From Candidatus Hydrogenedentota bacterium (lineage in GTDB: Bacteria > Hydrogenedentota > Hydrogenedentia > Hydrogenedentales > SLHB01), in contig JADLCA010000695.1 of NCBI GenBank assembly GCA_020847495.1, positions 1-34,157 of the forward strand: DNA of 34,157 bases, given 5' to 3'. The position numbers and the translations under genes are program-made. Position 1 is the stretch's first letter. Each line of letters begins with the position of its first letter. Under the pieces are notes generated by a model. That model had not been told where the DNA came from and did not search any database. It saw only the letters and a program-made list of their open reading frames with translations. Below are positions 16,712 to 31,367 of this stretch, piece by piece.

Positions 16712-18321
16712 GCGGTAGCACTCCCATTCCCCTTGGCTATGGTCATCCGTTCGAGCGCGCCGCTCTTCACCAGCGCGTCGATCGCGCCCGTGCTGATGGT
16801 TTCCAGCGCCTGTTGAACGATAGGCCCGATCTTCTGCGAGGCCGCGGCAACGATGGCCTCTTGCTCGGCCGCTTGCTGTTCGGGCGATTTCAGGTCCGCG
16901 GCGCGCGCGTCCAGCGCATCGGCCTGTTCTGCGGTCCAACCGGCGTAGCGCTGCAACGACTGCCCGAGCGGCACGCCCATGTCCACGAAGACCTTTGCCG
17001 TGTTCCCGCGATCGTCATCGGTCAGCGGAATCACGTCGCGCGATTTGAAGGTGTGCTCGAAATCGCCCTTCTTGTAGTCGCCAACGCCGGCGAACCCGGA
17101 GATCCCAAGGCTCTTGCCAATCGTCAGCGCCATCTGGTGCGCGCGAATGATGGCCGTCTCGGCGTTGCCGCGGGATTCGAGTACGCGCATGATCGCGGGC
17201 CCCATCTTGAGCAGGAGGGCTCGTCCGGACACGTCACCCGATTCCATGAGGTCGTAATAGCGGACCTCGGGCAGGTCGCGCGCGATCTCGGCGAGGTCGT
17301 CCGTGATCTGGTCTCGGTGCGACTGCCAGTTCAGGTCCGGGATCAGGAAGTCGACGGAGCTGTTTCCGGGACACTGCCAGACCTCCATGTCGCCAATGCT
17401 GAGGCGGTCCGTGTCGCTCTTCTTCTCGCCGCTGAGCTTGAACGTCGGCGCCGGCAGCGGCCGGCCGTCCGGGGCCACCGCGTTGGCCTTGGTGGCCAGG
17501 TGCGGCTTGTTGAACATGAACATGAGCTCGGCCAGCCGCGTGCCCTTCCGGTTGCACTCGTCGATCTTATCGATCGCAGGCCATATCGCCGGCATCCCGC
17601 GCTTGTCGCCGATGTCCCGGAATGGCGCGTGCACCCATGGGACAAAGTCGAGGCCAGGCACCAGCTCGCCCAGGGCCGACTCTGTGCTCGGGTTGCCGAG
17701 CCGGTCCAGTTCGGCGTCGAAGCCTCGGGTATGTTCCCAGAGACGGTAGCGCTCCCGGTCCCATACCTCGGTGTGGGTATACGGTTCGTTACGGCCATCG
17801 GCGCCGCGGCGCAAGCATTGGACCTCGTATCGCAGCCACGTGATGAAACCGCGCTCGTCCACGTCGAAGTCGCTCACGTTCTTGCCGTCGATGACCTGGA
17901 GGTAAACGCGCTCCCGGTCGCGCGTGGCCACCTTGACGAACAGGTCGCCGATCATGGCGTACTTGCGCGCGGCAACCTGCTTCTTCACGCCCCAGTTCGA
18001 CCACTGCCAGATCTGCTTGATGGGTTCCACAATGGCATCATGCTCCGTGACGATGGGTAGCGCGTCAGGCAACGGCCCTGGCCATAGGGTCATGGCGTAG
18101 AACTCCACGACCGCATAGGTGGGATTGCGCAGCGCGGCCATGTTCGGCGTCCAGAGATTCTCGCCGCGGAAGAATTCGAGCAGGTTCGTGTAGAGGCTGT
18201 TGTTGATGTAGTAGTCCTCGAGCATCTGGGCAAGCTGGCGCTCGGTCAACTCGTTCGGCTTCCTCACCGCGGTCGTACCAAACATTCGCGCGAGGCCCCT
18301 GGTTACGCGGCTAAGCAACAT
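16708..18321 (-). CDS. Phage portal protein
   Basis: Likely start MLLSRVTRGLARMFG at 18319-18321, just overlapping the terminase stop; 'PTYAVVEFYAMTLWPGP...WSNWGVKKQVAARKYAMIGDLFVKV'; follows TerL. The longer ORF to 19113 only extends out of frame through terL. Confidence 0.8.
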   Translation of the reverse strand: MLLSRVTRGLARMFGTTAVRKPNELTERQLAQMLEDYYINNSLYTNLLEFFRGENLWTPNMAALRNPTYAVVEFYAMTLWPGPLPDALPIVTEHDAIVEPIKQIWQWSNWGVKKQVAARKYAMIGDLFVKVATRDRERVYLQVIDGKNVSDFDVDERGFITWLRYEVQCLRRGADGRNEPYTHTEVWDRERYRLWEHTRGFDAELDRLGNPSTESALGELVPGLDFVPWVHAPFRDIGDKRGMPAIWPAIDKIDECNRKGTRLAELMFMFNKPHLATKANAVAPDGRPLPAPTFKLSGEKKSDTDRLSIGDMEVWQCPGNSSVDFLIPDLNWQSHRDQITDDLAEIARDLPEVRYYDLMESGDVSGRALLLKMGPAIMRVLESRGNAETAIIRAHQMALTIGKSLGISGFAGVGDYKKGDFEHTFKSRDVIPLTDDDRGNTAKVFVDMGVPLGQSLQRYAGWTAEQADALDARAADLKSPEQQAAEQEAIVAAASQKIGPIVQQALETISTGAIDALVKSGALERMTIAKGNGSATA

Positions 18322-20767
18322 GAGACAAACCCTCCCGTGCTCGCCAACCCTCGGCGAGAATGTGTTCCAAATAGATGACGCCCTGGTTGAAGGCGTCGAT
18401 CGAGTCCTTGAACGTGATGTGCGGGAACCCTTCCAGGTCGCGCTCGAAGTCGCGCAGCCAGGGGACCTTTTCGTGTGGCGACGGCAGCAACACGGAGCCG
18501 CGCTTGCAGTGGAGCGCCGCGCGCTGGGGACGCTCCCGGAGCTTGTCGCCGTACAGGGCCGGGTTGAATGCACGCACCAGGTTGGATATCCAGTCCTGGC
18601 GCTGCCGCAAGGCCTGAATGGCCGTGACCCCGCTGTCGCGGTCCTCGATGACGATCGCTGCGAGCTTCTCGTCGTAGTTCCAGCGTGTCGCGTCCTGTAC
18701 GACAAAATCCGGAACGTTGGTGCCGAGGACGCGATCCTTCCACGCGTCGCGGACGATGACGCGGTAGTCCGGAAGCAGCTCGAAGGCCACGCGCGCCGTG
18801 TAGGCGTTGTGGTCATCGGTCTTGCTGGCCGTGTCGTACGAGAGGATGCGGGATACCGCGCGGTTGTAGACGTGGGGCGTGCTCGGGTCGTACCGGTTCG
18901 TTCCAGCCCACCAGGACATGTCATACGGTTTCCCGCGCGGATCGACAACCCACAGGCCTTTGCGTAATTGCATACGCAGCGTCTCATCCAATTCTGCCAA
19001 GTTGGACTCGTACTGCTCGATGTCGATAAACGGGTTGTCGTCGAGCAGGGCCGGGATGAATGGGAAGCGCGCGCCAGTGGCCACGAACCGTTCATAGACC
19101 CATTGATGCCCAACTCCGCCAGGGTTCGAAGCTGAGCGAATCCGGAGCGGGATGTCGCTGCCTTCGTGCCGACGCAGTCGTGACAACAGGTAGGTGTACT
19201 GGAACTCCTCGAACTGGGTCAGCTCGTCCCATCCAACGAAATTGTAGGCCGCGCCCTGGTACTGGTACACGTCATTCGTGTGGTCCATGTACCCGAATTC
19301 GAGCGTGGCGCCGGACGGAAACGTCCACCGTTTCTTGTTGTCGTTCCATCTGGCACCTGTTCCGTTCAGCCACTGGTGCGCGCGTGGAATGAGCGAGTCT
19401 GCCTTCTCTAAGTCACGAAAGCTGCGGCGGAGCAGCAATGCCGAGTAGGTAGGTATTTGAACGAACTGCAGCGCAGCCATCAGCAAGGCGTCGCTATTGT
19501 GTGTAGGAATGAACGAATGCCCAACGAGAAACATCCCGTCGGCTGCATCCACTTTGATGCAACGAACCGGAACGCTCGTTACTGGCTCCACACTGACGAT
19601 GTAGCGATAGCGTGTTGTCCGCCTCAGATTGTCAGTGCGCTGGCGATCGGCCTTTCTTGCGATCCGGAATACGGTATCTGATGGTGTCCACTTCACTCGA
19701 TACTTGGGGCCAATGTCCCTGCCGTTCAGTTTTGCACGGCCTTCTGATACACGCGCTTTCCAGCCCAGGGAACAGGCAATCTCGCATACTGAATCGGCGA
19801 GGACGCGCGTCGTGCTCGTGAACTCGACAGAGCCGCTCTCGCATGCACATCCGTCTGTATCCATTAGACCCTGTAAGAGCGCAAGGCGTTGCTCGCGTGA
19901 AGCGCGGAAATACTCATTGGGGACATGCTTGCAACCAAGAAGCCCAATCTTCCTGAGATTGCCATATAGACCGTACGTTCCGTATGAATAGGTCGTGCTG
20001 CGCTTCGATACGCCAAATCCTGCGTCACGGATGAAATCGAGAATCTCTGGATCTGCCGTAGTTATCCCACCATTTGCCGTATTACCATCGCCAAGCCACA
20101 CCCCAAGCACATACGGATCAATTGGAAGCTCGGCATTGGGGCATTCAATCGCTCCACAAACCGGAATGGCATGATGAATCTGACGCTTCCGAACGCAGGC
20201 GCTAGCAGCAATCTGTGCAGTTGTTCTGAGAGATCCTGTTGGCGGGCTAATTGCCATCGGAGGCAATCGTCTATTTCTATCCGTTATCGCAGCAACAAAT
20301 GCTGCCGATCTTAGCCCTGTGGCCCTACTTGGCCTTTTGGCGCGGCGCGCGGCGCGCCACTCTGGATTACGGCGAGTAAGCGCGGCAAGTTCGGCCACAC
20401 TGAATGTAAGCCAGATATGATCCGCATCGGCGACGATCACGCTGCCATCATCGAATGACAATCGGTAGCACGGACGGCCATGCATCACGGGGGAGCATCC
20501 GAGGACCCGCGTTGGCCGTCCATCCATCCCGAACACTGTGTCGCCAGGCTGGACAGATCCCATCGTGGTCCAGCCATCAGGAATCGGAATAGGTGTGTCG
20601 ATAGACAACGCTTTCCCGCCGCCTACCGCGCCACCGTACAGCGCCTCGCGCTCGTGGAGTAAGAGGAACTGAGCCTGCTTGCGCGTGGGCTCGTGCGGAA
20701 TGAACGGATTGCTCAACACGGAGGTGCGGAGCAGGTCGGTATTCAGCGTTATGAGGTCGGCGGACAT
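18311..20767 (-). CDS. terL: Terminase large subunit precursor, interrupted by an intein
   Basis: 818 aa; Walker A 'YGGAVGGGK|...|SDALLMAALQF', exteins continue 'RRSFRDLEKADSLIPRAHQWLNG...YQGAAYNFVGWDELTQFEEFQYTYLLSRLRR...RIRSASNPGGVGHQWV', then a nuclease-like 'SYDTASKTDDHNAYTARV'. Confidence 0.93.
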   Translation of the reverse strand: MSADLITLNTDLLRTSVLSNPFIPHEPTRKQAQFLLLHEREALYGGAVGGGKALSIDTPIPIPDGWTTMGSVQPGDTVFGMDGRPTRVLGCSPVMHGRPCYRLSFDDGSVIVADADHIWLTFSVAELAALTRRNPEWRAARRAKRPSRATGLRSAAFVAAITDRNRRLPPMAISPPTGSLRTTAQIAASACVRKRQIHHAIPVCGAIECPNAELPIDPYVLGVWLGDGNTANGGITTADPEILDFIRDAGFGVSKRSTTYSYGTYGLYGNLRKIGLLGCKHVPNEYFRASREQRLALLQGLMDTDGCACESGSVEFTSTTRVLADSVCEIACSLGWKARVSEGRAKLNGRDIGPKYRVKWTPSDTVFRIARKADRQRTDNLRRTTRYRYIVSVEPVTSVPVRCIKVDAADGMFLVGHSFIPTHNSDALLMAALQFVQIPTYSALLLRRSFRDLEKADSLIPRAHQWLNGTGARWNDNKKRWTFPSGATLEFGYMDHTNDVYQYQGAAYNFVGWDELTQFEEFQYTYLLSRLRRHEGSDIPLRIRSASNPGGVGHQWVYERFVATGARFPFIPALLDDNPFIDIEQYESNLAELDETLRMQLRKGLWVVDPRGKPYDMSWWAGTNRYDPSTPHVYNRAVSRILSYDTASKTDDHNAYTARVAFELLPDYRVIVRDAWKDRVLGTNVPDFVVQDATRWNYDEKLAAIVIEDRDSGVTAIQALRQRQDWISNLVRAFNPALYGDKLRERPQRAALHCKRGSVLLPSPHEKVPWLRDFERDLEGFPHITFKDSIDAFNQGVIYLEHILAEGWRAREGLSHVA
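19496..20611 (-). other. Intein (about 372 aa) with LAGLIDADG-type homing endonuclease, inserted in the TerL Walker A loop
   Basis: N-terminal block 'ALSIDTPIPIPDGWTTMGSVQPGDTVFG', 'DADHIWLT', 'LGVWLGDGNTANGG' and 'LLQGLMDTDG' endonuclease motifs, C-terminal 'VRCIKVDAADGMFLVGHSFIPTHN' followed by +1 Ser. Confidence 0.93.
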
Positions 20768-20934: not shown

Positions 20935-21000
20935 ATGGCCTCCTGTTCTGCCAGGAGGAATATCACGAAAGGGGGTTTATGTCTAGGGGCGGGCATGAAG

Positions 21001-21027
21001 AGACCCGGTCCGAAGTGGACCGGGTCT
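21001..21027. terminator. Perfect 11-bp inverted repeat (AGACCCGGTCC-gaagt-GGACCGGGTCT), terminator or RNA-stability hairpin at the end of the TIGR-like locus
   Basis: Exact complementarity of 21001-21011 with 21017-21027, 5-nt loop; no clear U tract on either side, so terminator function is uncertain. Confidence 0.5.
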
Positions 21028-21139
21028 CGCTAACCTTTAATGGTTTTCTTCTTCAGATTGGCTCGCTTTGATTCTGTGGTCTCCTAAATCCGCCTGGATC
21101 GCTGAAAGCATTCGGGTTTCTATATTCTTCTGGCTAAGC
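21023..21139. repeat. Short degenerate TIGR-like dual-spacer array, distal to the 3' end of the tas-like gene (about 3 units)
   Basis: GGTCTCGCT-aacctttaa-TGGTTTTCT(21041)-tcttcagat-TGGCTCGCT-ttgattctg-TGGTCTCCT(21077)-aaatccgcc-TGGATCGCT-gaaagcatt-CGGGTTTCT(21113)-atattcttc-TGGCTAAGC; exact 36-nt period retained although the repeats decay. Confidence 0.8.
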
Positions 21140-21994
21140 AGCCTTATGGACCTTCCCGAGCTTAGCAACGCTGTATGGCTCCGATACTGGCAATCCTTCG
21201 ATGCGCCGCCATTCCATGTGAAGGTCAACAAGAAACATCTTGATCATGTACCGCATGGCCATGTTGTGCCGGTGCCCCTTCGTCTTCTCCTTGTGAACCT
21301 CGTGGTTCTCCAACCGGTTCTTGTAGTCCCGGTAGATGGCAGAGTACTTGTTGTCCCCTGCCCGAAGGAACGACGACGCGAGAACACCAACCAGCTTCGT
21401 TTTCAGGAACGGGTTGAACGTGATGCCGACACGCTTTGCCGGTTCACCTTCCTTGTTCACGTAATCGCGCTCAACTAGATGCTCCTTCTTGCGGCAACGC
21501 CCGTTTCCGTCCTGCGCTACGTCAAGCCCTGCGTATGCCCACAGGGAAGACGGATACTGCGCTTTGTGAATGTCGATCTCGCTGATGATGACACCGGCCA
21601 TGAGCGGGCCAACACCGGGCACGCCATGCAAGAACTCATTCCAGATGGCGAATCCCGAGAGCATTGACTTGATTGTCTTCTCCTGCTGGTTCTCGGCGTA
21701 TTCGAGATCGAACAGTCCCTTCACTAGACGCAACTCACTGTATGTGTCGATCACCCCATCGCCTTTGAACGTTGCCTCTCTCGGAAACGTCTTCACCCCA
21801 TCTGTGATTTTCCTGTATGACTTTCTGAGCCGTGCGAGGATTTCCTGGCCGACTTTATCAAGTTCATCCTCAGACTCGCCCGGCGCTTGGCCGAGCTTCA
21901 CCTTGAAGTTGCCAACAACACGGTTCCCCATCTGGATGCGCAACTTCTGGATGTCGTACATTCCTCTCACTACGATTCGCATTGACTCTTTCAT
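21134..21994 (-). CDS. Tas-like (TIGR-associated) protein: Nop/IS110 Transposase_20-like domain, no recognisable nuclease domain
   Basis: 286 aa; N-terminal helical region, then 'FLHGVPGVGPLMAGVIISEIDIHKAQYPSSLWAYAGLDVAQDGNGRCRKKEHL...FNPFLKTKLVGVLASSFLRAGDNKYSAIYRDYKNRLENHEVHKEKTKGHRHNMAMRYMIKMFLVDLHMEWR', matching the C-terminal pattern of IS110-type proteins; no N-terminal DEDD/RuvC motif; flanked by 36-nt dual-spacer arrays. Confidence 0.75.
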   Translation of the reverse strand: MKESMRIVVRGMYDIQKLRIQMGNRVVGNFKVKLGQAPGESEDELDKVGQEILARLRKSYRKITDGVKTFPREATFKGDGVIDTYSELRLVKGLFDLEYAENQQEKTIKSMLSGFAIWNEFLHGVPGVGPLMAGVIISEIDIHKAQYPSSLWAYAGLDVAQDGNGRCRKKEHLVERDYVNKEGEPAKRVGITFNPFLKTKLVGVLASSFLRAGDNKYSAIYRDYKNRLENHEVHKEKTKGHRHNMAMRYMIKMFLVDLHMEWRRIEGLPVSEPYSVAKLGKVHKAA

Positions 21995-22008: not shown

Positions 22009-22386
22009 TTGAACGCTACTGGACTGTGGTTTTCTAAACGGACCCGACTCGCTGCCTTATTGTGGTTTTCTTCGGTCATTTGGTTCGATCCAACGACATG
22101 GTTTTCTTCGCACGTATGGCTCGCTTCACCATATTGGTTTTCTGGTCCTCGGTGACTCGCTAGAGTTGTGTGGTTTTCTAAGGAACTATGGCTCGCTTAA
22201 TACAAATGGTTTTCTAAGAAGGGGTGGCTCGCTGCGCATCAATAGATTTCTAGCCTCGGCTGGCTCGCTAGGTAATCTTGGTTTTCTAAGGCTTGCTGGC
22301 TCGCTTGCCATTATTGGTTTTCTTCGCCATCCTGACTCGCTACGTACCGGTGGATTCATTTTCGGTACTGGCATTCTAGGTGCTAT
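22009..22386. repeat. TIGR-like tandem dual-spacer array: (TGGTTTTCT-N9-TGGCTCGCT-N9)n, 36-nt period, 9 clear units plus degenerate terminal units
   Basis: Repeat 1 at 22027, 22063, 22099, 22135, 22171, 22207, 22243 (TAGATTTCT), 22279, 22315 and 22351 (TGGATTCAT), each exactly 36 nt apart. Repeat 2 (TGGCTCGCT/TGACTCGCT and variants) starts 18 nt after each. Spacers differ in every unit. Confidence 0.93.
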
Positions 22387-23742: not shown

Positions 23743-24094
23743 AGAACGCCTCCATGGTCGCGGCCACGAGCACCTGCTTCCCGTTCAGGATTTGCGGAAC
23801 GCGTGACAGTTGAAGCCTCGTCGTCGCCAATACCAGAACCTTCACACTCTCACATTGGGCGTACCGATGAAGTTGCCGAGTCACCGAAGAGAGGGATCCG
23901 GCGATTTTGCATTCCAGGGCCACGTTGCCCACCATGAAGTCAACGACATCGCGCCTGTTCAGATGGAATTCGCGCTCGAATGCAATGCCGGATTTACGGA
24001 GCACTTCTGCGATCCCATCCTGGAACCGCTCTTCGCTCGACTCGTCGAACCGATGGCTCTCGATGCAGTTGCAGATCTGTTCCTCGATACTCAT
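23630..24094 (-). CDS. PD-(D/E)XK-like nuclease-fold protein
   Basis: In-frame ATG at 24092-24094 (MSIEEQICNCIESHRFDESSEERFQDGIAEVLRKSGIAFEREFHLNRRDVVDFMVGNVALECKIAGSLSSVTRQLHRYAQ); D-x-VDF...ECK matches a restriction-endonuclease-fold core. Confidence 0.5.
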   Translation of the reverse strand: MSIEEQICNCIESHRFDESSEERFQDGIAEVLRKSGIAFEREFHLNRRDVVDFMVGNVALECKIAGSLSSVTRQLHRYAQCESVKVLVLATTRLQLSRVPQILNGKQVLVAATMEAFCEVVWQRKMEARRVGDPMRASRGGRARNQTRPGARDS

Positions 24095-26250
24095 GCTGCC
24101 CCCTTCGCCATCATGCGGGACGTCCGCCAGGCTTCGAGCGCCTTCACCACAACCTTGCGCTTCGAGTACTGACCCTGCTCGATATGCCGGATGATCGCGT
24201 CGCAGCACGCCAGTACGGCCTCGTCGCGCTTGGGAAACGACTCGCCAGTAAGCGAAGGCAAATCGCCGAATGCTCCGTCGCCTACGCCGGTATTGCCATA
24301 TTCCACGCTCTTTCCAACACGCCAATCCCCGGGCGAGGCCTCGATCACCAGGATCTCCACCTTCGCGCCTGACCCCCGCGGCATCGGCACCTCCACCCGC
24401 TCATACCCATCACAAAACGTACCGTTCACGTTCACCCGCGGGTCCCCTTCCCACGGCGTACCCTCGAGCCCAGTCCGCCCATCAGCGCAATGCGTGCACA
24501 ACGTCCTCGTCTTATCGGCCCATGCACACGCATCGCCGTACTCATCCAAGCAAGCATTCCCCTCAGTGCACCCACACACGCGGCACATGCCGGGCTTCGC
24601 GCCAGCCGCGTCCTTGCTGCCCTTGGCCCCCTTCGCCCCCTTCGTGCCCTTGCTTGCCTTGGCCTTTGCGTCCTTTGCGTCCTTTGCGTCCTTTTTGTCC
24701 TTGCCGTCCTTGCCGTGCTTCCCGCCGGATTCCAGCTTCCCCCACCCCTTCGGCTCCGGCATCTCCGCGGCCACCTCCGCGCGCAACTCATCGAGCGGCC
24801 ACTCAAACAAGTCGCACACCCCGGTTACATCGGTCATCCTGACATCGTCCCTGTAGGCCGCCTCACGCACGCACTCGCGCAGCCTGCGCTTGATTACCCC
24901 CAACGCCATGAAGCCCAAGCGGAGGGCCACTTCATCGCTGCTGGAACTCTTGCTCACCCGTTCCAACTCTTCCCAGGCCGAATCTTTTGGGTAACGATCA
25001 TCGTCGTGCAGCGTCGGCGTGGGCGACCCAAAGACAGCGGCAAGGGCACATAACCATCCGCCGGACAGCTCCGGAATATCCTTGTGCGTTTCCTCGTTTG
25101 GGATCTTATCCAGCAACTTCTCAATCAGCGCCAGGTCACGCCGCTTCTGCAGCGCCTTCCGCTTATCCTTCAAACTCTTCTCTTTCTTCCCCCCGTCCGT
25201 GCCCCACAGCTTCTTGCCCCAATACATCGTCCCGTTCGCCGTTACGCACGGCACCGCGCCAGGCTCAGACTTCTTGCACCCACTAACGGCATACTTGCCT
25301 GTCGCCTGCTCAGCTAATTGCTCGGGCATGCCATCGTAGTGGGATTTGACAAGCAGCGGCTGCACTCCCGTCTTCGCCTGGACCTCCTCAAGACGCCGCT
25401 CCAGGAACTTCCGATGCTTCACTTCCCAGCACGCCGCGTCCAGGCACCGCGCCCCAGGCTTCACTGGCTTCCCATCACCTTGCGTGTCGAAGTCTTCAAC
25501 GTCGAACAGCAACGGCTCCGTATCGCTCCGCTTCGGACAATTCGCGCACGCGCCGATCGCCGGACACAACGTCTCGTCATCCAACGGCCAGGGCGCAAGG
25601 TCCAAGGCCTGGAGATAATCCGCCGTCGCGCTCCGCAGGTCGCTGGCGCTCATGTCAAACCACTGGGAGTATTTCTTCTTTGCCTGGCCGCGCAGCTCGT
25701 CCTGCACTGTCTCAGGGAACCGAGCGATGATCTCGAAGTGCTCCGCGGTCCAGTGTGTGGCTTCCCCCTGCATCGCCTCCATTTGCCACTCCGGGGTCAG
25801 CTTCACCAACTGACGCCGCCGCGCGCACCACTTCGCGCTCCGCCCCAGCCGGTCCCCGATCTGTTCGAGCGTCCAACCATGCGCGTGCAGCTTCTCGATG
25901 CCCTGGGCTTCCTCCAACGGGTGCAGGTCCTCCCGCTGCAGGTTCTCGGTCACCGTGATGGTCCAGGCCTCCTCGTCGCTCATCTCGCGCACGATGACCG
26001 GGACCTCCTTCAGTCCCGCCAGAACCGCGGCCCGATACCGCCGCTCGCCTGCGCGCAGGTCGATCTTCCCGCTCTGCTCCGGATGCGGCCGCCCAAGCAG
26101 TGGCTCCAGCACACCCAACGCCTTGATGGAGGTAGCCAGCTCCACCAGGCTTGGGTTTTCCCCGTCCGGGCCCGCAAAGATGCGCGGATTGTCCGGACTC
26201 GGAATGATCTGCTTCACCGGCACCATCGTGATTTGAATTGTCGTCGTCAT
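24091..26250 (-). CDS. ParB/Srx-like DNA-binding protein with a Lys/Ala-rich linker and C-terminal Cys cluster
   Basis: 719 aa; 'VPVKQIIPSPDNPR...SLVELATSIKALGVLEPLLGRP...DLRAGERRYRAAVLAGLKEVPVIVREMSDEEAWTITVTENLQREDLHPLEEAQG' canonical ParB N-terminus; C-terminal 'CRVCGCTEGNACLDEYGDACAWADKTRTLCTHC'. Confidence 0.88.
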   Translation of the reverse strand: MTTTIQITMVPVKQIIPSPDNPRIFAGPDGENPSLVELATSIKALGVLEPLLGRPHPEQSGKIDLRAGERRYRAAVLAGLKEVPVIVREMSDEEAWTITVTENLQREDLHPLEEAQGIEKLHAHGWTLEQIGDRLGRSAKWCARRRQLVKLTPEWQMEAMQGEATHWTAEHFEIIARFPETVQDELRGQAKKKYSQWFDMSASDLRSATADYLQALDLAPWPLDDETLCPAIGACANCPKRSDTEPLLFDVEDFDTQGDGKPVKPGARCLDAACWEVKHRKFLERRLEEVQAKTGVQPLLVKSHYDGMPEQLAEQATGKYAVSGCKKSEPGAVPCVTANGTMYWGKKLWGTDGGKKEKSLKDKRKALQKRRDLALIEKLLDKIPNEETHKDIPELSGGWLCALAAVFGSPTPTLHDDDRYPKDSAWEELERVSKSSSSDEVALRLGFMALGVIKRRLRECVREAAYRDDVRMTDVTGVCDLFEWPLDELRAEVAAEMPEPKGWGKLESGGKHGKDGKDKKDAKDAKDAKAKASKGTKGAKGAKGSKDAAGAKPGMCRVCGCTEGNACLDEYGDACAWADKTRTLCTHCADGRTGLEGTPWEGDPRVNVNGTFCDGYERVEVPMPRGSGAKVEILVIEASPGDWRVGKSVEYGNTGVGDGAFGDLPSLTGESFPKRDEAVLACCDAIIRHIEQGQYSKRKVVVKALEAWRTSRMMAKGAA

Positions 26251-28670: not shown

Positions 28671-29363
28671 CTACGCAGCGCCCCTCTTGCGCCCGCGACG
28701 CGCCGCCGGTGCCTCGGCCTCCACCACCTCAGCCTCTGGCGTCTCGGCCTCCGCCATCGAATCGCAATCATCTCCGGGCGTAGCATCGGCGGCTGGCGCG
28801 CCGTCGTTTTTCCACCAGTCCGGCAACTTGCGCGGCGTGCCGTCCTCATTGAACTCTGCTGTGCCGAGGTCTTGCGTCTCACCCTCAGCTTCCTCGCCCT
28901 GAGTCTCGTCGCCTTCAGGGGCCTCGCCCTCGGTCAGAGCCTCACCAAGGTCCATCTGGCCACCAGCTTCGCCAGCTACTTTTGGCGCGACCGTGTTCGG
29001 GATGACGGTCTGTAATCCGTGGATGGACACGCCCGAGCCCATCTCAGCCAGCGAGATGATGTTGTCCGGCGTGTTGAGCGCCGAGACAGTGACCGTGACG
29101 CCCTTGCCAGGCTGGAACGTCACCTTGTCGATACTGCCGCGCACCGTCAGCACGTCGCCGGCGTCGCAGTAGTAGGTTGCCGCGAAGTTCGCGCACCGTT
29201 CCGCGGCCTCGAGAATCGTCTCGTGCAGGTACAGGCGCTGCTCGTCGTTAATCAGCGCCAGGGCCTTTTCGTCGATGCACTCAATCTGCCCGATGATGTT
29301 GCCACAGGCGGTAAGGAGGATTTGTTCGATAGCTTCCTTCAGTCGGTCTCGCGTCGTCGTCAT
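28671..29363 (-). CDS. Hypothetical protein, acidic Ala/Glu-rich C-terminus
   Basis: 230-aa ORF, overlaps the DUF1064 gene start by a few nt. Confidence 0.5.
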   Translation of the reverse strand: MTTTRDRLKEAIEQILLTACGNIIGQIECIDEKALALINDEQRLYLHETILEAAERCANFAATYYCDAGDVLTVRGSIDKVTFQPGKGVTVTVSALNTPDNIISLAEMGSGVSIHGLQTVIPNTVAPKVAGEAGGQMDLGEALTEGEAPEGDETQGEEAEGETQDLGTAEFNEDGTPRKLPDWWKNDGAPAADATPGDDCDSMAEAETPEAEVVEAEAPAARRGRKRGAA

Positions 29364-29785
29364 GTGATGCTCCTCGTTGGTTTCCCATTCCGAATAACCC
29401 GCAGCTCCACCTGTGGATACCGCTTTCGGAACAGCTTCTCCTTCAGTTTCCAGACGGGCGTATCGACGCCCTTCACGTCCTCCACCACAACGCGCCCGGA
29501 TGCCTCCGCGTACTGAAAGTCGGCGCGGTACTCGATGGCGCGGTAGCGCGCGCCCGTGGCGTCCCTAAACGATTCCTGAAGCACGAAGCGCGGTTGTAGT
29601 CGGATGTCGTGTACGAGGCCCTCGCGCTCCATAAGGCGCAGTTCCGCGTAACGCTTCGCCTCGGCCTGGCTGTCGAAGCGGTGGCCGTCGAGTTCGGCGT
29701 GCTTCGCGTGGTACTTGTGCGCGCGCTTCGGCTTGGCCGTGGCCATGTGACGGTACTCGTCGGCTGTGATGACGGCGTGGTTCAC
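29360..29785 (-). CDS. DUF1064-type phage endonuclease-fold protein
   Basis: 141 aa; 'KYHAKHAELDGHRFDSQAEAKRYAELRLMEREGLVHDIRLQPRFVLQE...RAIEYRADFQYAEASGRVVVEDVKGVDTPVWKLKEKLFRKRYP' is the classic DUF1064 pattern. Confidence 0.85.
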   Translation of the reverse strand: MNHAVITADEYRHMATAKPKRAHKYHAKHAELDGHRFDSQAEAKRYAELRLMEREGLVHDIRLQPRFVLQESFRDATGARYRAIEYRADFQYAEASGRVVVEDVKGVDTPVWKLKEKLFRKRYPQVELRVIRNGKPTRSIT

Positions 29786-30393: not shown

Positions 30394-31367
30394 TGCGCCA
30401 CCTCCGCTTGTTCCGTAAGCCACGCCGCGGTCTGTTTGTTGAGCCACGCGCTCGGGTTCTTCACTGCGCCGTTAAAGCCCTTTGTCTCACGCAGCCGCGG
30501 GTCATCACGGTTGTCGAGCTCCTGGAGTAGTTCCCAGCACCGGTCCTCGCCTCCTGGAACCTTGGCCATTTCCTTCAAGCGCCGCTCCCAGAATGAGCGC
30601 CTCGAACGGCGAGCGTCAGGCTGCTCGTGAGCAACGAATCTTTCGATGAGCGATTCTGGTTGCGGTGGAAGGATGTCCGCGATGGCTGTCGGTTTTGCGT
30701 TCTCCCGGCTGGATGTACCTCCGCCGAGTGCCGATCCGCCGGGCGCGTTGGTTTCCCCCGATCCCCCTTCCGATCGGCGCTTCGGCTGAGATAGATCTTT
30801 CTTTTCTTTAGTCTTTAAGTCTTTAGTCTTTAGGAGCATGCCTTTCGCATCCGTTTCGCATTGCGGATCGCATGCTGGCGCGCATGCCGTTCGCATGCCG
30901 TTCGCATATGCCTTCGCACTGCGTTCGTATTGCGTTCGCATTGCGTTCGCATCGGTTTCGCCGCCCGATTTCCACCTGGAATTGGCCGACTCGCGCGCCA
31001 TCTGAGAGCGCCGCGCCTGTGCCTGGACCTCCTTCCGAAGGCCGTTGCTCACGTAGCACCCGTCCTCTTCGCGGAGTAGAGGATTGGCCGGATTCTGAAT
31101 CTCGCGCATCGCGGCGTTGAGCTTGCGGCCAGATAGCCCCGTGGCGCGCGTCAAGACGGAGTTGTCGATAGGGATGCTGCACTGGTCGTTCCCGTCGCGC
31201 CACATGTAGCAGAGGATCATGTGATAGGCCCGGTAGGCCTCCGCGCTCAGGCTGAAGGTTGCCGCGATCCACTTGTCGGGATAGAACACAAACCCACATC
31301 GACGACTACTGTCACTCACGCGATCAGCTCCATCTGTTTCGGTTCCGCCACGATGCGGTAGAACCAC
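30390..31367 (-). CDS. Phage replication initiator-like protein (DnaD/DUF1376-like N-terminus)
   Basis: 325-aa frame; 'FVFYPDKWIAATFSLSAEAYRAYHMILCYMWRDGNDQCSIPIDNSVLTRATGLSGRKLNAAMREI...RSQMARESANSRWK' winged-helix replication protein pattern. Upstream start not certain. Confidence 0.65.
   Translation of the reverse strand: MVLPHRGGTETDGADRVSDSSRRCGFVFYPDKWIAATFSLSAEAYRAYHMILCYMWRDGNDQCSIPIDNSVLTRATGLSGRKLNAAMREIQNPANPLLREEDGCYVSNGLRKEVQAQARRSQMARESANSRWKSGGETDANAMRTQYERSAKAYANGMRTACAPACDPQCETDAKGMLLKTKDLKTKEKKDLSQPKRRSEGGSGETNAPGGSALGGGTSSRENAKPTAIADILPPQPESLIERFVAHEQPDARRSRRSFWERRLKEMAKVPGGEDRCWELLQELDNRDDPRLRETKGFNGAVKNPSAWLNKQTAAWLTEQAEVAQ
30791..30952. repeat. Candidate replication origin inside the initiator gene: about 11-nt iteron-like TTCGCAT repeats next to an AT-rich AGTCTTTA tract
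   Basis: TTCGCAT-type motifs starting at 30890, 30901, 30913 (TTCGCAC), 30924 (TTCGTAT), 30935 and 30946; adjacent AT-rich 30791-30832 atagatctttcttttctttagtctttaagtctttagtcttta. Confidence 0.5.

What the first reader, a model, noticed from the sequence alone, without database searches (positions are those of the whole stretch)
21134..21994. IS110/Nop-like protein that has lost or never had the nuclease half
Seen: the N-terminal about 120 aa are charged and helical, with none of the DEDD-type acidic motifs expected of IS110 catalytic domains. The C-terminal part keeps the helix-hairpin-helix-like 'GVPGVGPLMAGVIISEI' and the 'AYAGLD...G..RKK...FNPFLKTKLVGVLASSF' blocks. The region where IS110 enzymes usually carry the catalytic Ser (Gly/Ser-rich after AGL) reads 'AQDGNGRCRKK', with no obvious serine. 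No IS ends or target duplication were noticed. Inference: an RNA-binding scaffold rather than an active transposase.
Basis: partly seen in the sequence, partly recalled or inferred. Interest (0 to 1): 0.85.

Follow-up and report, generated by a model that had tools for sequence, protein, structure and literature searches.

The report
Phage TIGR-TasA RNA-guided DNA-binding system
The protein is TasA, the nuclease-free member of the recently described TIGR-Tas family: a phage protein that probably uses short paired guide RNAs, encoded in two arrays on either side of its gene, to bind chosen DNA sites without cutting them. It is a new example of a known kind of system, but its relatives gave a rare clue to what such systems aim at: transfer-RNA genes.

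Summary
ORF 21134-21994(-) is a 286-aa Nop-domain protein with no nuclease domain. It is TasA of a dual-repeat TIGR-Tas system (Faure et al. 2025): NCBIfam TIGR_Tas_endo E=2.3e-37, above its cut-off; closest solved structures TasR (9mty) and TasH; predicted fold (pLDDT 88.7) matches these before IS110/IS621. The deciding arrays lie outside the given coordinates. Ten 36-nt units lie directly upstream and three directly downstream of tasA, same strand: edge AGCGAGCCA, 9-nt spacer A, loop AGAAAACCA, 9-nt spacer B (11 matches versus 0.04 expected). The downstream array starts in tasA's stop codon and ends in a truncated edge repeat fused to a strong hairpin. The contig is a tailed phage. Likely mechanism: RNA-guided binding of both DNA strands without cutting, acting as a roadblock. 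No target was found for the window's own guides. Across about 85 related loci (1,371 guide pairs) there is no self-targeting. One guide kept in six related phages while its neighbours changed matches tRNA D-arms exactly in the published geometry: 38 gap-free viral hits, 34 inside tRNA genes. A second matches a phage replication helicase gene (suggestive). New member of a known kind; the natural-target lead is the interesting part.

The parts
21134..21994 (-). tasA, 286 aa: N-terminal helical coiled-coil (residues ~2-112) plus IS110/Nop-type RNA-binding domain (~115-283); no nuclease domain
   Evidence: NCBIfam NF052498 TIGR_Tas_endo E 2.3e-37, cut-off passed; TasR/TasH by sequence and fold; Pfam Transposase_20; AF2 pLDDT 88.7
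22009..22375 (-). TIGR array 1, upstream of tasA: 5' truncated edge AATGCCA, then 10 units (spacer A 9 / loop 9 / spacer B 9 / edge 9); last edge AGCGTTCAA is degenerate and lies just before the tasA start region
21026..21137 (-). TIGR array 2, downstream of tasA: truncated edge TTAGCCA contains the tasA stop codon, 3 units, ends in 3' truncated edge AGCGAG
21000..21028 (-). 12-bp hairpin fused to the last truncated edge repeat; terminator-like, but with only a weak T tract
   Evidence: -29.2 kcal/mol, z -5.2; not called by the T-run terminator scan
24091..26250 (-). ParB-like protein (ParB_N + HTH), same strand, about 1.7 kb upstream of array 1; context, not shown to belong to the system
   Evidence: Pfam PF02195 E 7e-20, PF17762; PHROGs ParB-like
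18311..20767 (-). terminase large subunit (with intein), next large gene downstream of tasA; shows the contig is a tailed phage

Best explanation
The locus is a phage-borne dual-repeat TIGR-TasA system. Array 1, tasA and array 2 are probably transcribed together on the minus strand. The RNA would be processed into about 36-nt tigRNAs (half edge, spacer A, loop, spacer B, half edge). A TasA dimer would hold the two box C/D-like repeats of one tigRNA. Spacer A pairs with one DNA strand and spacer B with the other over an 18-bp site (A followed by the reverse complement of B, gap 0-2). Having no nuclease, TasA would bind, unwind and bend the site, and so block transcription or replication of the target. 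Shown here: protein family and fold, absence of a nuclease domain, array anatomy, strand and placement, conservation of this layout in about 85 relatives, and for one relative group a guide whose two halves match tRNA genes in exactly this geometry. Inferred from Faure et al. on TasR/TasH: processing, dimerisation, DNA binding, bending. Inferred without direct evidence: the roadblock effect and which replicons are affected. The stated confidence is for identity as a TIGR-TasA system; the roadblock step alone is nearer 0.5-0.6.
For: NCBIfam TIGR_Tas model over its curated cut-off. TasR 9mty E 4e-12 and TasH E 1e-8 by single sequence, 1e-23 and 3e-19 by profile. Foldseek top hits are TasH and TasR, then IS621. 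Array statistics and anatomy match the array features listed in PMC12045711, including 5' and 3' truncated edge repeats. Relatives: 1,602 units parsed, essentially all on the tas strand and next to tas. Dual-strand geometry supported by the tRNA-matching guide.
Against: No expression or processing data. No target found for the window's 13 guides: none in the window; 7 of 13 searched in the host-bin genome gave only one 2-mismatch hit, equal to the control; one guide scanned in viral contigs gave no gap-free hit. Box D here is AG rather than the UG of TasR. No sigma-70-like promoter was found and the terminator T tract is weak. The roadblock step rests on analogy only.
Confidence: 0.93

Rival explanations
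1. A degenerate IS110 transposase remnant that has lost its DEDD half, with no function in RNA-guided targeting.
For: Pfam names it Transposase_20, PHROGs 'transposase'.
Against: Arrays with matched repeats abut the gene on both sides. Intact ORF, 40-65% identical across dozens of phages that nearly all keep arrays on the same strand. IS110 NCBIfam score 25.9 is far below its cut-off of 140. No IS ends.
Confidence: 0.02
2. TIGR-TasA whose role is not interference but assistance to DNA transactions of the phage itself (for example a DNA-bending partner of an integrase, ParB-like or packaging proteins).
For: Faure et al. propose integrase aid and describe tasA-parB operons. A ParB-like gene lies 1.7 kb away here. 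A small ParB-like gene adjoins tas in a separate clade of 9 relatives. The tRNA-gene target in relatives is compatible with attachment-site biology.
Against: No guide targets its own phage within 10 kb in about 85 loci: true pairs equal controls. The window's ParB belongs to another family and is not adjacent. The tRNA match is in the D-arm, not the usual integration part of tRNA genes (own knowledge).
Confidence: 0.2
3. TasA recruits a separate nuclease in trans and the system cuts its targets.
For: Nop5 recruits fibrillarin in an analogous way (PMC12045711). A Holliday-junction resolvase-like gene (29360-29785) and a ParB-like protein are encoded in the same phage.
Against: Neither is adjacent to tasA, and no nuclease family recurs next to tas across relatives.
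Confidence: 0.08

Closest known systems
TIGR-TasA, dual-repeat type (e.g. FpTIGR of Flavonifractor plautii; Faure et al. 2025, PMC12045711)
   Same: Solo Nop-domain protein; alternating edge and loop repeats of 9 nt with 9-nt spacers, 36-nt period; arrays upstream and downstream; truncated edge repeats at array ends; in a tailed phage.
   Different: Box D dinucleotide AG instead of the UG reported for TasR arrays; array 2 overlaps the stop codon; short arrays (10 + 3 units); TasA-specific activity untested.
TIGR-TasR (PDB 9mty) and TasH (PDB 21kl, 9w02-9w04, 9vzx)
   Same: Nop/coiled-coil fold, sequence similarity, tigRNA array logic.
   Different: The window protein has no RuvC or HNH nuclease domain.
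IS110/IS621 RNA-guided transposases (PDB 8wt6-8wt9)
   Same: Homologous RNA-binding domain; weaker fold and sequence match.
   Different: No DEDD domain, no catalytic Ser, no element ends; array of guides instead of one bridge RNA.
Box C/D snoRNP Nop5/Nop56/58
   Same: Nop fold and box C/D-like guide anchors (family knowledge, PMC12045711).
   Different: Only a weak structural match (3nvi_A, rank 44, E 3.1); guides target DNA, not RNA methylation.

Membership tests
TIGR-Tas (TasA) | Nop-domain protein of the Tas family | tested here: met
   NCBIfam NF052498 129.1 bits against cut-off 100; TasR/TasH homology; fold
TIGR-Tas (TasA) | No nuclease domain (TasA as opposed to TasR/TasH) | tested here: met
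   AF2 model and domain scans show only coiled-coil and Nop domain in 286 aa
TIGR-Tas (TasA) | Adjacent array of two alternating 8-12-nt repeats with ~9-nt spacers | tested here: met
   13 units, 36-nt period; 11 motif matches against 0.04 expected
TIGR-Tas (TasA) | Arrays begin and end with truncated edge repeats, then a terminator | tested here: inconclusive
   Truncated edges found at both array starts and at the array 2 end; hairpin z -5.2 but poor T tract
TIGR-Tas (TasA) | Box C (CCA) and box D shared by edge and loop repeats | tested here: met
   Both repeats begin AG and end CCA in the window and in most relatives; AG replaces UG
TIGR-Tas (TasA) | tigRNAs processed to 36 nt, binding DNA by tandem spacers on opposite strands | not testable with these tools
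   Only indirect: tRNA match of a relative's guide in the A + rc(B) arrangement
IS110 transposase | DEDD/RuvC-like catalytic domain and catalytic Ser | tested here: not met
   Absent; IS110 NCBIfam 25.9 bits against cut-off 140
IS110 transposase | Element ends / bridge RNA flank | tested here: not met
   No flanking inverted repeats; arrays instead
Box C/D snoRNP Nop protein | Nop5/56/58 similarity with L7Ae/fibrillarin partners | tested here: not met
   No sequence hit; structural hit only E 3.1

The most novel reading that the evidence does not exclude
TIGR-TasA systems of phages carry a fast-changing set of guides against rivals plus, in some lineages, a fixed guide aimed at host or phage tRNA genes (the D-arm, most often tRNA-Ile GAT). 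TasA would then be a programmable, non-cutting repressor or site-blocker of tRNA genes. In six related viral loci this one guide is kept with its unusual loop repeat while both neighbours differ, and its two 9-nt halves read as A + rc(B) match 38 gap-free viral sites, 34 inside predicted tRNA genes.
Probability: 0.5. Interest if true: 0.75.

Novelty: new member of a known kind. Interest (0 to 1): 0.42.

Why it matters
Faure et al. state that genuine targets of TIGR spacers are hard to identify and that the function of nuclease-free TasA is unclear. This locus adds a clean dual-repeat TasA in a phage binned with a bacterial genome. Its relatives yield two concrete target hypotheses, a tRNA D-arm and an AAA_25 replication helicase gene, and a clear negative on self-targeting within about 10 kb. 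That makes the question of what TasA is for directly testable.

Tried and rejected
(1) Self-targeting: A + rc(B), gaps 0-2, up to 3 mismatches, in about 85 loci: no excess over four control pairings; no offset or orientation spike up to 45 nt. (2) Similarity between spacers A and B of a unit (palindromic targets): none. (3) Differences between homologous guides falling in one codon phase: none; synonymous-change test p about 0.10, not significant. (4) Targets of window guides in the host-bin genome: 7 of 13 searched, nothing beyond chance. (5) Targets in E. coli rRNA: none. (6) tRNA matches among all other guides: none beyond background. (7) Two other conserved guides scanned in viral contigs, GTATGCTRA/AATGGGCTT and GCAAGCAAG/CRTACTRTA: no gap-free hits. 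(8) ParB as a fixed partner: a small ParB adjoins tas only in one clade; the window's ParB is another family. (9) Own-phylum survey: tasA found in the window's assembly only, 1 of 68 genomes, so it is phage cargo rather than a host gene. (10) Rfam: no family in the region. (11) One motif check was mis-specified and was replaced.

Full report
Observation. The ORF at 21134-21994 (minus) exists and reads as quoted. It is intact, 286 aa. The N-terminal region is helical and charged. No nuclease domain is present: the 41-sequence AlphaFold2 model (pLDDT 88.7, pTM 0.81) has three long N-terminal helices followed by the Nop/IS110-type domain. Domain scans find only Transposase_20 in the C-terminal part (Pfam).

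Identity. NCBIfam assigns it to NF052498 TIGR_Tas_endo (E 2.3e-37, 129 bits, cut-off 100); the IS110 model scores 25.9 against a cut-off of 140. The word 'endonuclease' in that model name does not fit this protein, which lacks a nuclease. phmmer against solved structures gives only TasR (9mty, E 4e-12) and TasH (E 1e-8); the family profile gives E 1e-23 and 3e-19, with IS621 at 0.09. Foldseek ranks TasH and TasR first (E ~1e-9 to 1e-6), then IS621/ISCro4 (E >= 1e-3).

Arrays. The deciding evidence lies outside the given coordinates. [quoted passage not shown] It ends directly before tasA. Array 2 (21137 to 21026) starts with a truncated edge repeat that contains the tasA stop codon, has three units, and ends in a 3' truncated edge AGCGAG that runs into a 12-bp hairpin (21000-21028; -29.2 kcal/mol, z -5.2). 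The T tract after the hairpin is poor and the simple terminator scan does not call it. Edge-N9-loop occurs 11 times with up to 3 mismatches against 0.04 expected. This matches the published TIGR array description (8-12-nt alternating repeats, 9-nt spacers, arrays upstream and/or downstream, truncated edges). Box D is AG instead of UG, in both repeats, as the reported covariation would predict.

Context. The contig is one of 800 in a 6.9-Mb assembly and is a tailed phage: tail-tip, Dit, tape measure, portal, terminase large subunit, resolvase and ParB-like genes. The terminase large-subunit gene is the next large gene downstream of tasA on the same strand. No tasA was found in 67 other genomes of the phylum, so it is phage cargo.

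Relatives. Scans gave 4 and then 80 viral loci and 10 genome loci. A parser seeded with the edge/loop consensus recovered the window's 13 units and 1,602 units in total (1,371 distinct spacer pairs), essentially all on the tas strand. Guides turn over quickly: loci whose tasA is 97-99% identical can share only one or a few units.

Targets. By the published cutting geometry (and the C-5 rule) a target reads A followed by rc(B). Within the held flanks (up to 10 kb each side) true pairs match no more often than A+B, rc(A)+B, B+A or cross-edge pairs, and no other offset is favoured. So there is no sign of self-targeting. The window's own guides have no target in the window. Seven of 13 searched in the assembly gave one 2-mismatch hit, the same as the control. 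One scanned in viral contigs gave no gap-free hit.

Two conserved guides of relatives did better. (a) CTAACCARA / ATAGCTCAG occurs in L021 and L023-L027, whose tasA genes are as little as 82% identical. Both neighbouring units differ between L021, L023 and the L024-L027 set (between L024 and L026 only the unit before it differs), while this unit, with its odd loop GCACAACCA, is kept. A viral-contig scan with gap 0-2 returned 43 stretches: 38 matches at gap 0, 3 at gap 1, 3 at gap 2; 34 of the 38 lie in ARAGORN tRNA genes, most often tRNA-Ile(GAT). Other 18-mer scans returned 0-5 hits per gap. Spacer A is complementary to the tRNA strand and spacer B identical to it, which is what dual-strand DNA targeting predicts; an RNA target would be paired by A only. 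Among all 1,371 guides only this one matches a tRNA set without mismatch in the true arrangement, and none does in the controls. That tRNA set includes tRNAs retrieved by this very pattern, so the zero-mismatch count is not independent; the collection scan and the conservation are. An alternative parse is A = CTAACCAR (8 nt) with loop AGCACAACCA and a 1-nt gap, also within the published tolerance. (b) TAGAGGTCA / AGCGAACTA, present with variants in the L009/L011/L013/L016/L047 group, matches two homologous phages gap-free (L142, L145) within an AAA_25 helicase gene at codons for RGHSSL. Variants at spacer positions correspond to Arg (AGA/CGA/CGT) and Leu (CTx/TTx) codons, with one exception (AGT, Ser). 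Only the consensus form was found in the collection, other guides of the group do not match these phages, and the general synonymous-change test is not significant. This is suggestive only.

Mechanism. Shown: family, fold, no nuclease, array anatomy, conservation of layout. Inferred from TasR/TasH biochemistry (PMC12045711): processing to 36-nt tigRNAs, symmetric dimer, dual-strand pairing, sharp bend. Inferred without test: TasA as a programmable roadblock. Rivals (aid to own DNA transactions; recruitment of a nuclease in trans) are less supported.

Literature. In the held library (open-licence PubMed Central) a search for TIGR-Tas terms found the founding paper and otherwise mostly reviews and passing mentions. 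Its main text names no tRNA target and says genuine targets are hard to identify. Its supplement and subscription papers could not be checked.

Verdict. The finding is correct and its protein is a new member of a known kind, TIGR-TasA. The added value is the target lead in relatives and the negative on self-targeting.

Noticed in passing
L021:7120-7165, L023:8016-8061, L024:9616-9661, L026:11766-11811 (approximate): A single tigRNA unit (CTAACCARA / ATAGCTCAG) is conserved with its atypical repeats while neighbouring units differ; its target A + rc(B) is the tRNA D-arm, with 34 of 38 gap-free viral hits in tRNA genes.
   Followed up: yes
L142:1590-1607 and L145:5985-6002: Gap-free exact match of the most conserved guide of the L009/L011/L016 group inside an AAA_25 replication helicase gene (motif RGHSSL); most guide variants look like synonymous codons. 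Arrays occur in metagenomes 3300021960 and 3300021962, the target in 3300021961, consecutive dataset numbers.
   Followed up: partly
window 18311-20767 (-): Terminase large subunit is interrupted in its Walker A motif (VGGGK|SDALL) by what looks like an intact LAGLIDADG intein, starting ALSIDTPIPIPDG and ending GHSFIPTHN|S.
   Followed up: partly
window 24091-26250 (-): ParB_N/HTH protein with a long C-terminal extension, 1.7 kb upstream of the array; its similarity group has members in two other tas loci, apparently L008 and L090, not adjacent to tas.
   Followed up: partly
L072-L076, L078, L083-L085: Clade in which a ~230-aa ParB-like gene adjoins tas (eight upstream, one downstream in L076), probably the published tasParB-tasA arrangement.
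   Followed up: partly
L015, L035, L036 and the L009/L011/L047 group: Several guide families keep spacer A identical while spacer B changes, or reuse one spacer with different partners (e.g. L015), hinting that the two halves can evolve or recombine separately.
   Followed up: partly
NCBIfam NF052498: The model is named 'RNA-guided endonuclease', but it is only 215 positions long and is matched end to end by this nuclease-free TasA, so automatic annotation will mislabel TasA proteins as endonucleases.
   Followed up: no
L030:1-3500: A 58% identical tasA relative without a recognisable array in the held stretch; the contig starts about 1 kb upstream of tas.
   Followed up: no
window 30836-30952: Imperfect tandem repeat of GCATGCCGTTC-like units, periods 11/23/34, overlapping predicted ORFs; not examined.
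   Followed up: no
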